A stretch of 64,000 nucleotides of DNA. Origin: Dialister hominis. Lineage in GTDB: Bacteria > Bacillota > Negativicutes > Veillonellales > Dialisteraceae. This document shows, one piece after another, positions 19,646 through 24,141 of the stretch. Location of the stretch: positions 602,001 through 666,000 of the forward strand of contig NZ_AP019697.1 of NCBI RefSeq assembly GCF_007164725.1, written 5' to 3'. The first letter of the stretch is position 1, and each line of letters starts with the position of its first letter. Position numbers and translations under genes: made by a program. Under the pieces are notes generated by a model. It did no database searches, was not told the origin of the DNA, and saw only the letters and a list, made by a program, of their open reading frames with translations.

Positions 19646-19776
19646 ATGGGGATTGGCAGAAGAATCAAAGAAACGGATGATGTGCAGATGAAAGAAACAA
19701 AACCAGCCAGGGCAGAAATTACTTTTTTCCGGAAGATCCCAAGTACACGCTGGATGATCTTATTCTTCCATCGCGC
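19646..19776 (+). other. Out-of-frame 5' part of the AAA+ gene with slippery heptamer
   Basis: A frame starting at ATG 19646 behind GGTGATGG encodes MGIGRRIKETDDVQM and KETKPARAEIT, then leaves the ATPase frame. The ATPase frame itself is open upstream of GTG 19777 and encodes PEDPKYTLDDLILPSR, which looks like the family's usual lead-in to the AAA+ core, but it has no start codon back to the stop at 19678-19680. The two frames join by a -1 shift at T-TTT-TTC (19723-19729), a canonical slippery heptamer in exactly the right phase. The joined protein would be about 310 residues. A single-base loss in the T run, real or from sequencing, would look the same. Confidence 0.55.
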
Positions 19777-20577
19777 GTGAGGGAGCAGATCCTTGATATT
19801 GCCGATTATGCGAATAACTGCAGGGTCGTCTATGAAAAGTGGGGACTGGAGGAGACACATAAGTATGCCAAGAGGCTCGGCATCAATTTATACGGGCCAT
19901 CAGGCACGGGCAAGACCATGGCGGCTCATGCGATTGCCTCATACCTCCACAGAAGGATACTAATCGTCAATTATGCGGATATTGAATCCAAGTTTGTCGG
20001 GAAAACGCCAAAGAATATCCGGCGCGCTTTTGAAGCCGCGGCAGAAACAGGGAGCATTCTCTTTTTTGATGAGGCGGATGCCATACTGAGCCGGAGGGTC
20101 ACTTCCATGACAAGCTCGACGGATGTGAGCGTCAATCAGACGCGCTCGGTCATGCTGATGCTCCTCAATGATTATCAGGATTTTGTCATTTTTGCGACGA
20201 ACTTCATTGAGAATTTCGATCCTGCGTTCATGAGGAGAATTTCCACGCATATTAAGTTTGAACTGCCGGATTATGACTGCCGTCTTAAGCTGTGGAAGAA
20301 GTATATTCCTGCCAAGATGCCTCATGATATACAGGTTGAAAAACTGGCAGAAAAATATGCAGGGATTACAGGAAGCGACATTTCCAATGCCGTGCTCATG
20401 GCCGCTTTCAAAGCCGCCCGCCATCATGATGACTATGTGAAAGAGGCATATGTGGAAGAAATGATTGAAAATGTGCTGGAAAGCAAGGCGGCCGATGAGA
20501 AGAATCAGGAGGTAACGACAAGGAAAGTCGTTTCCAAAGAGTATGTCGATCATGCGCTGCATGGAGACAAAGAGTGA
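19777..20577 (+). CDS. AAA+ ATPase of an unrecognised four-gene operon
   Basis: A classical AAA ATPase core. Numbered from GTG 19777 (266 residues), Walker A GPSGTGKT is at 40-47, Walker B ILFFDE at 94-99, sensor-1 Asn142 in FATNF, and the arginine fingers in MRRIS (153-154). The C-terminal helical lid (ELPDYDCRLKLWKKY onward) is complete. No protease, membrane or other domain is fused, so it should act as an unfoldase or remodelling ATPase on partner proteins. GTG 19777 has no ribosome binding site, and the true start is probably 19646 through a -1 shift at 19723-19729. The C-terminus carries TTRKV, echoed in two neighbours. The next gene starts 19 nt downstream. Confidence 0.8.
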   Translation: MREQILDIADYANNCRVVYEKWGLEETHKYAKRLGINLYGPSGTGKTMAAHAIASYLHRRILIVNYADIESKFVGKTPKNIRRAFEAAAETGSILFFDEADAILSRRVTSMTSSTDVSVNQTRSVMLMLLNDYQDFVIFATNFIENFDPAFMRRISTHIKFELPDYDCRLKLWKKYIPAKMPHDIQVEKLAEKYAGITGSDISNAVLMAAFKAARHHDDYVKEAYVEEMIENVLESKAADEKNQEVTTRKVVSKEYVDHALHGDKE

Positions 20578-20596
20578 TTCCAGGGAGGGAAATCAT

Positions 20597-20959
20597 ATGA
20601 TTCCATTTTTAGTAGGACTCGGGCTGGTGATTGGCGGGACACTTCTCGTTAAGTACTGGAAGAATATCGTAGACTGGCTGAAGGATTTCATACCGAAGCT
20701 TAAAATGGCATGGAAAAGGGTAAGGCCGATGCTGCCATATGCCGCCATTATCGTCGGGGACAAGCTCTGGGAGGCAGGCTCTGCGCTTGTGGCCGTCATG
20801 CACAGGCTTTATTACAAGGAAAACGGGGAATGGATCGAGCAGACGACGACGCGGAAGGTCGAAGAAAGTGAAGTGCCTGCCCACATCCGGGACCGCTTGA
20901 AGAATGAAGAAACAAATATCACTCACGAGATAGAAGAAGAACTTGAGTTAACTGTGTAA
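20597..20959 (+). CDS. Small membrane-anchored protein, unknown function
   Basis: A 120-residue protein with one N-terminal membrane segment (FLVGLGLVIGGTLLVKYW, residues 3-20), amphipathic basic helices (DWLKDFIPKLKMAWKRVRP), a second weakly hydrophobic stretch (YAAIIVGDKLWEAGSALVAV) and an acidic C-terminal tail. No family was recognised. The tail contains TTRKVEESEVPAHIRDRL, closely matched at the end of the zinc-ribbon protein of the same operon and in part at the end of the ATPase. ATG 20597 follows GGGAGGGA at 20583-20590. It could be a membrane receptor or substrate for the ATPase; this is inference. Confidence 0.78.
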   Translation: MIPFLVGLGLVIGGTLLVKYWKNIVDWLKDFIPKLKMAWKRVRPMLPYAAIIVGDKLWEAGSALVAVMHRLYYKENGEWIEQTTTRKVEESEVPAHIRDRLKNEETNITHEIEEELELTV

Positions 20960-20973
20960 ATGGGGGAGTCAAG

Positions 20974-21366
20974 ATGGAATCAGGTACCTTCAATCAGCTT
21001 TTCAAAGGATTCGTCAATGAAGTCATTTCACCGTTCTTTCCAAAGACGCTCGAGCAGCTGGCAGAGGGATGCGAGAAGAAAATAGACCGCATCATCCTGA
21101 AGGAAGAAGTGGAAAATGATTATGATTTTGCCGGCGGGGAATTTACAATTTCCTATTACAATAAGAATTCTTTCCTTTTGAGCGCGTCGCTTTACTTCAA
21201 GGACACCAATGAGGATTGGGTGGAAGTGAAGTCGGAAAGCCAGCCAAGGGATATGAAATATCTTACGGGCGAAGCGGCCGAAGAACTCCGCGCCAAGGGA
21301 AAAGCCATATTCAATATCGATGCGCCCAAGTTCAATGCGGACGGAAGCATCGATGTTTCAAAATGA
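20974..21366 (+). CDS. Small soluble protein, unknown function
   Basis: A 130-residue protein with no signal peptide or membrane segment. The first half is helical (TLEQLAEGCEKKIDRIILKEE) and the middle has alternating beta-like strands (GGEFTISYYNKNSFLLSASL). No family was recognised. Unlike its neighbours it lacks the RKV tail. ATG 20974 follows GGGGGAG at 20962-20968, 14 nt after the previous stop, so it is clearly part of the operon. The small size and lack of catalytic motifs suggest an adaptor or binding subunit. Confidence 0.75.
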   Translation: MESGTFNQLFKGFVNEVISPFFPKTLEQLAEGCEKKIDRIILKEEVENDYDFAGGEFTISYYNKNSFLLSASLYFKDTNEDWVEVKSESQPRDMKYLTGEAAEELRAKGKAIFNIDAPKFNADGSIDVSK

Positions 21367-21411
21367 CGGGATGCTTTTCAAAAGAATGTCTGGAGCGGAG
21401 GCGGAAAAGTC

Positions 21412-22752
21412 ATGTCAGTCGTTTTTGATATTGTCATAGCGTTCGTTGTCCTTGTCATTGCCGTCGTTGTCATCAAGTACGCTCTTATTCTGGGAGCCGC
21501 CGTCCTGGCTGTCCTCTGGAACGGAGTCGTCATCCTTTTGAGAAATAGATGGATCACGGCTTTCTTCTTATGGGAGGCGCTGTCGCTGTTTCCGCCGACT
21601 GCGCCCTATGTCCTTGGATTTGAAGGAAACTTTGCGCCGTCCCTGAGGGGCATCCTTCCCTGGCAGATCATGATGGCTCTCTGGGGCGGCTTCTGCTTTG
21701 CCATCCTTCAGTGGAGCGTCAAAAGAAGGCCGCGGAAACTGATTATCAAGAATCTGAAGAAAATCTTCCGCGAAAAAGGGGCAATCATCGGAGACGGAAG
21801 GACAACGCGTTCATTTATTGATGACTATAATGAGTCCGGGCTGATGTTCCTCGATCATTTCTTTATGAATGCATGGGGAAATGAAAATCTGGAGTCCGAA
21901 TACCTGGCAGAGGGTCTCCAAAGCGGGGAACTGAAGAAAGTTCTGTATCCGGATCCTATTTTCGGCAAAAATGCGGAATGGTATGTTTCCATAAGAAAAC
22001 TGAAGGAACTCAAAATTCAGGCCGGGGATGATGCTAGGGAGAGGATAGAGGCCCGTCTGGCATCGTTTGGCGTGCTGACGCCTGATTTTTTTGATGAAAG
22101 AAACAGAAAATCAAAGGGAAATCTTTTCTATGAGGAAGATTCCCTGGGCTCGCTGATGGATATGCAGAGGGAGAGTTTCCTGAAGGAAAGCTGCGATGAA
22201 TACATGCGCGCGCATGTAGGAAGCTTTATTGCTGAGACAATGGAGGGATACCAGTACTTTTTTAGCGCTCCGGCGCTTGGAGCCTGCGGAAAAAGATGGC
22301 TGGTACAAGATTTCCTTTCCAGAAGCTTTCTTGGGATGGAAATGAGCGAATCTCTCTTCTTGAAGATGGTTCAGGAAATTGAACGGATTGCGCCCTCTAT
22401 CAATCTTTCGGGGGCCTTTCTGCTTGCAACGAATCCTCTTGAAGGGGCTTTCCTGATCCGGAAAGGAAGGGAAGGGGCCTGTGCCTGCGAGCGGTGCGGA
22501 GAGATCTTCATGCATCGTGAACTGCTTGACGGCCATAAGTACTGCAGCACCTGCGCAGCCTATATCAGGAATCATACCTGCAGCCAGTGCGGAAATTACT
22601 TCGATTTCGAACTGAACAGGCATGGAAGCCGTATTCTCTGCGATGAATGCCTTGCTATGATTGAGGAGGCAGAAGAAAACGGGACGCCTGTTTTAAGAAA
22701 AGTGAAGGCAGAAGATGTACCGCCTGCCATACGGGAAAAACTCGGAGGATAG
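21412..22752 (+). CDS. Membrane protein with C-terminal double zinc ribbon, unknown function
   Basis: A 446-residue protein. Two or three hydrophobic segments open it (VIAFVVLVIAVVVIKYALIL, LILGAAVLAVLWNGVVILL and a third near 90-110). A long soluble region (about 115-355) follows with no recognised fold. Four CxxC pairs then make two zinc ribbons (CERC, CSTC, CSQC, CDEC, about 365-420). The last residues read LRKVKAEDVPPAIREKL, matching the tail of the 20597-20959 protein. ATG 21412 follows GGAGGCGG. It is the last gene of the AAA+ operon. It may be the membrane platform of a complex with the ATPase; this is inference from linkage and shared tails only. Confidence 0.78.
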   Translation: MSVVFDIVIAFVVLVIAVVVIKYALILGAAVLAVLWNGVVILLRNRWITAFFLWEALSLFPPTAPYVLGFEGNFAPSLRGILPWQIMMALWGGFCFAILQWSVKRRPRKLIIKNLKKIFREKGAIIGDGRTTRSFIDDYNESGLMFLDHFFMNAWGNENLESEYLAEGLQSGELKKVLYPDPIFGKNAEWYVSIRKLKELKIQAGDDARERIEARLASFGVLTPDFFDERNRKSKGNLFYEEDSLGSLMDMQRESFLKESCDEYMRAHVGSFIAETMEGYQYFFSAPALGACGKRWLVQDFLSRSFLGMEMSESLFLKMVQEIERIAPSINLSGAFLLATNPLEGAFLIRKGREGACACERCGEIFMHRELLDGHKYCSTCAAYIRNHTCSQCGNYFDFELNRHGSRILCDECLAMIEEAEENGTPVLRKVKAEDVPPAIREKLGG

Positions 22753-22799: not shown

Positions 22800-24045
22800 G
22801 GACAAAACGTGTTGGTAATTAATCCCAGTCATGGCTGGGATTAAATCCAGAATTATGTAATTCGTCCCACATTATGGCATCACCCCAAGCTGGGATTGAA
22901 TCTGCCAGTCTTTGTTGTGAGCTTATGCTATTATAGATAGTAGAAATGCTTTTATCGGTCGGCATAACCTTGAGTATTTCTGAGAGTGAAAGCGGTTTCG
23001 GTGAGTGCATGTAACACCACCAGAGAACCGCTTTTATTCGTCTTTCAACGAATAATCCACGATGGTTTCTGAGCATCGCTCGAAGCTGTGCATTTACACC
23101 GCCCTCTATGAGATTATTTGTCGCCGGATAAGGACTTGGGAATTCATCAGCCTCTTTCAGATAGGTGAAAAGATTCCCGGATTTTATCAGACTAATGAGC
23201 GATGTTTTTGCCTTTATGAGGCGTTCGTGGGTGTGTCGCATTACGCCTCTATCGTCCATTGTCATTTCTTTTAGAAATTCCTTATGCTTCATTGTCCAAG
23301 ATTCAAATCGGCTTACCTATTTTTCTGCTTTTTTAAGAGTTTTTATCTCTAACAAATCCCTGGCAAGCATATACAGCTGGGCACCGGCAAGGGTTCTTGG
23401 ACGAGTCGTTGTGTAACGTCGTACCTGGCAAAATACATGAAATATGCAGCGCTGCAGTCTGGCATTTGGCCAGACTTTTTTAATGCCTTTTAAAAACCCG
23501 GACCACCGTCAGAAACGACTATACGTGGTTCAGCAATACGACTCATCAAGGCTTCCCAGGCAAAAGCACGTTCATATCTACATAAATACCATCCTAATAC
23601 ATGATGCTCATCACAACGGATCAGAATGCAGGCTTTTCTGGCAAGATAAATGCCATCAACATATACAGTTTCCCTCAGTTCTTCAATCTTCGGCGGCATG
23701 GCCCAGATATCCCAAAATTTCGCTGTTTTTCTTCGGAAATTACGCCCTTCACCTGTCATATCCTTCTGTGTATCCTTGCTGAATAACCAATCAAGAAACA
23801 TACTGAAATCCTTCGCATCACGATTAATAGGAAGAGTAAATACATTCCCACATTCTCGGCACTTCCAGCGTTGTGTTCCTGCCCGTGTTTTTCCATATTT
23901 GTAGCAGGTAAAACCACAATAACGACATCTAACTTCTTTCATAAAATAACCTCCTAGAAAATAATTCATTTCCTAGGAAAGATAAAATACCATTTTAGCT
24001 CGTATTTACAAGGTGTTTGAGACTTTTTACCAACACGTTTTGTCC
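22800..24045 (-). mobile_element. Decayed IS1249-like (IS256-family) insertion sequence
   Basis: Perfect 19-bp terminal inverted repeats GGACAAAACGTGTTGGTAA (22800-22818) and its reverse complement (24027-24045) enclose one transposase gene on the minus strand. A second, related end (ACCAACACGAAATGTCCTATAA, 24118-24139) lies 73 bp outside the right end and mirrors TTATAGGACA at the left, suggesting nested or overlapping insertion of a relative. The immediate flanks of the 19-bp repeats are not duplicated; the outer 12-bp repeats are. The element is inactive because its transposase is broken. Confidence 0.8.
22819..23942 (-). pseudogene. IS1249-family transposase, frameshifted and with an internal stop
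   Basis: The first part (23942 to about 23490) has an N-terminal zinc-ribbon pair (CRYCGF and CRECGNVF) and the catalytic-region motifs VYVDGIYLARKACILI, VLGWYLCRYERAFAWEAL and VSDGGPGF. The frame then hits TAA at 23490-23492, but one base out of phase it continues as KKVWPNARLQRCIFHVF, so a base was lost in the CCGGG run near 23495-23500. A second lesion is TAG at 23317-23319 inside the continued frame (a Trp or similar codon in AEK-VSRFESW). The tail resumes as TMKHKEFLKEMT and runs to NPSHDWD at 22819. The start at 23942 has AGGAGGT upstream. Confidence 0.85.
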
Positions 24046-24073
24046 ACCCTTTAAGAATCACTGAAAATCTTAG

Positions 24074-24114
24074 AATGCCGATGGATCCCGATAAATACGG
24101 GTTCCATCGGCATT
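24074..24114. repeat. Long hairpin outside the IS right end
   Basis: AATGCCGATGGA (24074-24085) pairs with TCCATCGGCATT (24103-24114), and CCCG with CGGG inside, around a 7-nt loop and one T-T mismatch. There is no T run on either side, so it does not look like a terminator. It may be part of a small non-autonomous element ending at 24139. Confidence 0.6.
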
Positions 24115-24141
24115 AAAACCAACACGAAATGTCCTATAAGC

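What the first reader, a model, noticed from the sequence alone, without database searches (positions are those of the whole stretch)
19646..22752. Unrecognised operon: AAA+ ATPase, two small proteins and a membrane zinc-ribbon protein
Four genes with gaps of 14-45 nt on one strand, ended by one terminator, encode an AAA ATPase with intact Walker A, Walker B, sensor-1 and arginine fingers but no effector domain, a single-pass protein, a small soluble protein and a membrane protein ending in two zinc ribbons. None of the three partners matched a family I could name. The ATPase may remodel a membrane complex made of its neighbours. The layout is not that of FtsH, Clp, MoxR-VWA or known toxin systems.
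Basis: partly seen in the sequence, partly recalled or inferred. Interest (0 to 1): 0.72.

Follow-up and report, generated by a model that had tools for sequence, protein, structure and literature searches.

The report
Tag-sharing AAA ATPase membrane gene cassette
A small, apparently mobile bacterial gene cassette pairs an ATP-driven ring motor with membrane proteins that carry the same short peptide tag as the motor; in relatives the tag sits on many different cargo domains, suggesting an unreported plug-in machine for recruiting proteins to the membrane.

Summary
The four-gene operon is real. Genes 1-3 (classical AAA ATPase P1, membrane-anchored P2, small soluble P3) form a conserved cassette. 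Of 29 loci found by P2 alone, 28 have P3 next to it and 21 have P1. P2 occurs in 78/380 Negativicutes genomes, and the trio also lies on two proteobacterial plasmids. P4 is not conserved; it fills a variable payload slot.

New finding: a ~22-residue peptide (RxVxExEVPxxIR, or RxVSEEYVKxQ on the ATPase) is shared by P1, P2 and P4, and by nothing else in this genome. In relatives it is attached to EIIA-Glc, HPr, Sel1, TPR/NTF2-like and other proteins. The ATPase tail carrying it tracks with P2/P3. P2 and P3 share a domain, and P3 is fused to an Eleos-like dynamin in two loci.

Best explanation: an ATPase-driven membrane scaffold that recruits swappable payloads through a shared docking peptide. 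It works like the "effector-associated domains" of bacterial conflict systems but is not one of them. Docking and ATP-driven remodelling are inferred; the biological role (defence or envelope stress) is open. The operon is inserted between dnaJ and rpsD, where two congeners have nothing. In this genome the ATPase start codon is one base out of frame.

The parts
19647..20577 (+). P1: classical AAA ATPase (open frame 19681-20577; ATG 19647 lies in a frame offset by one base at the T-run 19723-19728)
   Evidence: Pfam AAA 9e-28; nearest solved relatives Cdc48/p97; catalytic motifs and pore-loop aromatic conserved in 74 relatives; relatives start MGIG[RK]RI and continue FxPEEPKY in one frame
20509..20571 (+). 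A-type tag at the ATPase C-terminus (EVTTRKVVSKEYVDHALHGD)
   Evidence: motif model hit E 2.9e-5 in own genome; tail present in 41/50 loci with P2+P3 against 5/35 without, p 4e-10 with a regex written after inspection; 1.6e-6 with a model trained on P2 only
20597..20959 (+). P2: MIP... Gly-rich hydrophobic anchor plus C-terminal domain containing the B-type tag
   Evidence: 44-row alignment; model pLDDT 86, helix 21-42 then three strands
20837..20902 (+). B-type tag in P2 (EQTTTRKVEESEVPAHIRDRLK); third strand and short helix of the predicted fold
20974..21366 (+). P3: small soluble alpha+beta protein, homologous in its C-terminal half to P2; carries no tag; candidate tag reader
   Evidence: profile comparison prob 90, E 1.4e-6; model pLDDT 78; 0 of 43 P3 with motif at 8 bits or more
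21412..22752 (+). P4: membrane protein with two C-terminal zinc ribbons; payload of the variable slot
   Evidence: analogues L008, L013, L017, L038 share the zinc ribbon...RYVxxPPPG layout, three of them with N-terminal membrane segments
22684..22746 (+). B-type tag at the P4 C-terminus (TPVLRKVKAEDVPPAIREKLG)
   Evidence: 20.5 bits with a matrix trained on P2 only, 0 of 3560 shuffles at 14 bits or more; E 8e-6 in own genome
22752..22788 (+). terminator-like hairpin with T-run

Best explanation
A mobile cassette encodes a hexameric AAA motor (P1), a membrane-anchored scaffold protein (P2) and a homologous soluble adaptor (P3). A short strand-turn-helix peptide, present on the motor's C-terminal tail, in P2 and on the payload (here P4), docks these proteins onto a common reader, most likely P3 or a P2/P3 sheet, by strand addition. 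ATP hydrolysis, with substrate gripped by the intact aromatic pore loop, then loads, remodels or releases the payload at the membrane. The payload is exchangeable, so the cassette is a general recruitment machine. Shown: the genes, their linkage, the shared tag and its restriction to the operon, P2-P3 homology, payload diversity, insertion at this site. Inferred: hexamer, docking, reader identity, ATP-driven remodelling, and a role in defence or envelope stress.
For: P1-P2-P3 linkage in loci found through P1 and independently through P2. Tag model trained on P2 finds P4 and many accessory proteins; a model trained on ATPase tails finds 11 small accessory proteins at 13.5-36 bits, shuffle maximum 5.2 in 3820, all in P2/P3 loci. 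In the own genome only P2, P4 and P1 carry the tag. ATPase tail tracks P2/P3. 22 of 34 core loci with an accessory gene in the operon have a tagged, P2/P3-fused, zinc-ribbon or CxxCxxCC protein. Hydrophobic MIP-type anchor plus tag fused to EIIA-Glc (L036), tag-like N-terminus fused to HPr (L032); P3 domain fused to an Eleos LeoBC-like dynamin (L010, L011). Distant parallel: in Planktothrix a 98-aa domain is shared (53%) by a small membrane protein and the C-terminus of an Hsp70-TPR protein in the same gene row.
Against: No interaction was tested; complexes could not be predicted. Tag matches in P1 tails are weak with the P2-trained matrix (2 of 47 at 8 bits or more) and partly follow ATPase phylogeny. 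12 of 34 core loci with an accessory gene show no recognisable payload mark. Nine loci have P2 and P3 with a tail-less ATPase. Only the best of five P2 models is confident (86 against 55-63).
Confidence: 0.45

Rival explanations
1. Membrane-protein quality control: P1 is an Msp1/FtsH-like extractor, and P2, P4 and the tagged accessory proteins are its substrates, the tag being a degron or extraction signal; a host protease finishes the job.
For: Classical AAA domain with KYVG pore loop; FtsH- and Cdc48-type models match the ATPase domain; tagged proteins are often membrane-anchored.
Against: The ATPase carries the tag itself; no protease in the cassette; a patchy cassette that varies from locus to locus does not look like housekeeping.
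Confidence: 0.2
2. Anti-phage or abortive-infection system: the payload (zinc ribbon, dynamin, CHAT protease, NTF2/TPR) is an effector that damages or seals the membrane when the ATPase senses infection.
For: Cassette on two plasmids and an ATPase with the tail at the edge of a prophage record; WYL regulators next to it in L038 and L088; Eleos-type dynamin payloads; a PbeC-like gene upstream in L019; CHAT protein beside the ATPase in Streptomyces; best NCBIfam hit of P1 is anti-phage ATPase IteA (IetA), far below its cut-off.
Against: Most Selenomonad copies sit among housekeeping genes; payloads such as EIIA-Glc, HPr and Sel1 are not known toxins; no PADLOC family for P2-P4.
Confidence: 0.35
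3. ESCRT-like membrane remodelling: P2 polymerises on the membrane and P1 disassembles it as Vps4 does with Snf7, the tag playing the part of a MIT-interacting motif.
For: Single classical AAA domain, membrane-anchored small partner, tail peptide; dynamin payloads imply membrane work.
Against: No MIT domain in P1; P2 is predicted as helix plus beta-sheet, not an Snf7/PspA helical hairpin; the tag is on the ATPase too.
Confidence: 0.12
4. Decaying passenger DNA: the ATPase is frame-broken here and the cassette is no longer functional in this strain.
For: One-base frame offset at a T-run; insertion beside an IS with a broken transposase frame.
Against: All four frames are otherwise open and all motifs intact; the offset lies on a slippery T TTT TTC and could be bypassed by -1 frameshifting, or could be a homopolymer sequencing error.
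Confidence: 0.25

Closest known systems
Effector-associated domains (EADs) of NTPase-centred conflict systems (Kaur et al. 2020, PMC7159879; PMC8195603)
   Same: A small module is repeated on the core protein and, at N- or C-termini, on diverse payloads in neighbouring genes
   Different: Here it is a ~22-residue peptide, the core is a classical AAA ATPase with P2/P3 (no MoxR-vWA, GTPase or STAND), and payloads include PTS proteins and dynamins
IetAS anti-phage system
   Same: IetA-type AAA ATPase is among the best library matches to P1
   Different: No IetS protease; score 119 against a curated cut-off of 510; different partners
Eleos (LeoA/LeoBC dynamins)
   Same: LeoBC-like dynamin is a payload in L010, L011, L031 and L041, fused to a P3 domain in L010/L011
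   Different: No dynamin in this operon; Eleos has no AAA-P2-P3 core (own knowledge)
Vps4-ESCRT-III / PspA-AAA systems
   Same: Classical AAA ATPase working with a small membrane partner through a peptide motif
   Different: No MIT, no Snf7/PspA; different P2 fold; tag also on the ATPase
FtsH and Msp1
   Same: AAA domain and pore loop
   Different: No peptidase domain, no membrane segment in P1

Membership tests
EAD-coupled conflict system | one copy of the module at the N- or C-terminus of the core component | tested here: met
   ATPase C-terminal tail in 41/50 loci that have P2 and P3
EAD-coupled conflict system | further copies fused to effector or signalling domains encoded nearby | tested here: met
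   Sel1, TPR/NTF2-like, EIIA-Glc and zinc-ribbon proteins
EAD-coupled conflict system | module is a small folded domain of the described EAD families | tested here: not met
   ~22-residue peptide; no Pfam or other library match in P2 or P4
EAD-coupled conflict system | MoxR-vWA, GTPase or STAND core | tested here: not met
   classical AAA (Pfam AAA 9e-28; Cdc48-like), no vWA in the operon
EAD-coupled conflict system | homotypic interaction recruits effectors | not testable with these tools
   no complex prediction or binding data
IetAS | IetA equivalog score | tested here: not met
   118.6 bits against cut-off 510
IetAS | adjacent protease gene ietS | tested here: not met
   no protease in the operon
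FtsH | M41 peptidase domain and membrane segment on the ATPase | tested here: not met
   P1 ends after the AAA lid
MoxR-vWA ternary systems | MoxR ATPase with vWA partner | tested here: not met
Vps4/ESCRT | MIT domain on the ATPase and an Snf7/PspA partner | tested here: not met
   no such Pfam match in the four proteins
Eleos | LeoA and LeoBC dynamins | tested here: not met
   none of the four proteins matches; present only in related loci
P2/P3 fold relatives in the PDB | significant structural match | tested here: inconclusive
   Foldseek best E 0.02 and 0.07; VIA Z at most 5.7 and 5.2

The most novel reading that the evidence does not exclude
A new class of AAA machine in which one short strand-helix peptide, present on the motor, on a membrane scaffold and on interchangeable payloads, plugs unrelated domains (zinc ribbons, dynamins, PTS phosphocarriers, proteases) into a single ATP-driven membrane complex, spread by mobile elements as a polymorphic defence or stress platform.
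Probability: 0.35. Interest if true: 0.85.

Novelty: new variant of a known kind. Interest (0 to 1): 0.62.

Why it matters
If true, it shows that bacterial effector recruitment need not use folded adaptor domains: a 20-residue tag shared by the motor and its cargo would suffice. It would give uncharacterised protein families in rumen, gut and oral Negativicutes a common function, and supply a sequence signature for finding further payloads. It would also offer a natural modular targeting tag for an AAA motor.

Tried and rejected
Fold searches of P3 and P2 against the PDB and of P3 against viral models gave nothing significant. IMG/VR scan with P1: no relative; P2 in phages: none. P4 in 380 Negativicutes: two doubtful fragments only. 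Programmed frameshifting as a family trait was rejected: relatives encode FFPE or its equivalent at the same site in one continuous frame; for this genome alone it stays open. Moraxella phage Mcat5 as proof that phages carry the cassette was downgraded: its ends are undefined (N/A in PMC4619438) and the ATPase ends at the last base of the record. Treating the ~570-620-aa genes next to the orphan ATPases as partners was rejected after two examples (L061, L075) proved to be prolyl-tRNA-synthetase-like housekeeping genes (identified by eye). The tag tally by regex was written after seeing the tails; the matrix test is the fairer one. Literature searches found no description of the cassette in the held library, which lacks most subscription journals.

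Full report
Observation. Four + strand genes occupy 19647-22752 with gaps of 19, 14 and 45 nt and a terminator-like hairpin behind them. P1 is a classical AAA ATPase, nearest among solved proteins to Cdc48/p97, with invariant catalytic residues and an aromatic pore loop. P2, P3 and P4 match no Pfam, NCBIfam, PADLOC or PHROGs family convincingly. One correction: the family start MGIGRRI at 19647 and the ATPase body are in frames offset by one base at a run of six T. Relatives encode the same stretch in one frame. Sequencing error, mutation and -1 slippage cannot be told apart here.

Insertion. Two congeners have rpsD directly behind dnaJ. In the window the operon and an IS element lie between them. 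The own genome has one P2 and none of the 11 other genomes of the family has any. The operon was therefore probably acquired.

Conserved cassette. The 80 best ATPase relatives in GTDB genomes are mainly Selenomonadaceae, and more than half carry P2 and P3 directly downstream in this order. Starting from P2 instead, 28 of 29 loci have P3 next to it and 21 have P1 within the 1.5-kb flank (counted from its listing). P2 occurs in 78 of 380 Negativicutes genomes but is rare in the wider phylum. The trio also lies on Moraxella and Comamonas plasmids. P4 is not conserved. Four of the nearest loci have a protein of the same plan in its place (zinc ribbon ending RYVxxPPPG; membrane segments in three of them); others have different proteins.

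Shared tag. P1 tail, P2 and the P4 C-terminus share RxVxExEVPxxIR or its ATPase form RxVSEEYVKxQ. A matrix trained only on P2 gives P4 20.5 bits and finds nine further accessory operon proteins at 14 bits or more, against none of 3560 shuffles. A matrix trained on ATPase tails finds 11 accessory proteins at 13.5 bits or more, with a shuffle maximum of 5.2. In the own genome only the three operon proteins carry it (the model includes them, so the informative part is that nothing else matches). The tag stands at N-termini (Sel1 and TPR/NTF2-like proteins; a tag-like stretch before HPr), behind a MIP-type hydrophobic anchor (EIIA-Glc, small membrane proteins) or at C-termini (P1, P4). ATPases in loci without P2/P3 mostly lack the tail.

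P2 and P3. Their C-terminal halves are homologous (probability 90, E 1.4e-6). The models agree in order: helix, three strands, helix. In P2 the tag is the third strand and following turn-helix. P3 has no tag. Hence the inference that isolated tags are read by P3 or a P2/P3 sheet, by strand addition.

Payloads. Besides zinc ribbons: CxxCxxCC proteins, CAP-associated/NTF2-like membrane proteins, DUF1232, TerB, and dynamins of the Eleos LeoBC type, two of them fused to a P3 domain. More distant ATPases lie beside a CHAT protein in Streptomyces and beside an Hsp70-TPR protein in Planktothrix; the latter shares its C-terminal domain with a small membrane protein of the same gene row.

Interpretation. 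The architecture follows the EAD principle (PMC7159879) in using one module on core and payloads, but with a peptide instead of a domain and a classical AAA motor instead of MoxR-vWA, GTPase or STAND. It works like an EAD system and is not a member. Docking and ATP-driven remodelling are inferred. A defence role is plausible from plasmid carriage, WYL neighbours and Eleos-type payloads, but untested; envelope stress is the alternative.

Noticed in passing
window 19647-19777: Start codon and body of the ATPase are in frames offset by one base at T6 (19723-19728); the heptamer T TTT TTC is slippery.
   Followed up: partly
window 22800-24134: IS element with inverted repeats GGACAAAACGTGTTGG (22800, 24030) and a third variant copy near 24119; the transposase appears split over two frames.
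   Followed up: partly
L041, L035, L037, L031: Tandem expansions with several P2-like and up to two P3-like genes, and small proteins that carry both tag types.
   Followed up: partly
L061, L075, L078 and about 25 other loci: Orphan ATPases without tail, P2 or P3; those looked at lie next to housekeeping genes.
   Followed up: partly
L036:1683-2309; L032:7655-8008: EIIA-Glc and HPr domains fused to a tag or tag-like N-terminus: possible PTS phosphocarriers tethered to the complex.
   Followed up: partly
L145:2892-8385: Streptomyces plasmid: related ATPase, two small proteins and a 1197-aa CHAT-domain protein.
   Followed up: no
L144:1941-3722: Planktothrix plasmid: five small proteins in a row before the ATPase, one sharing a domain with an Hsp70-TPR protein.
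   Followed up: partly
L019:23-8637: PbeC-like protein, dynamin-like protein, ATPase, two P2, P3 and a CxxCxxCC gene in one stretch: possible defence island.
   Followed up: no
L046:5284-5877: Hydrophobic upstream protein without Pfam match ends EDVPPYIREKIKS, a tag-like C-terminus outside the downstream operon.
   Followed up: no
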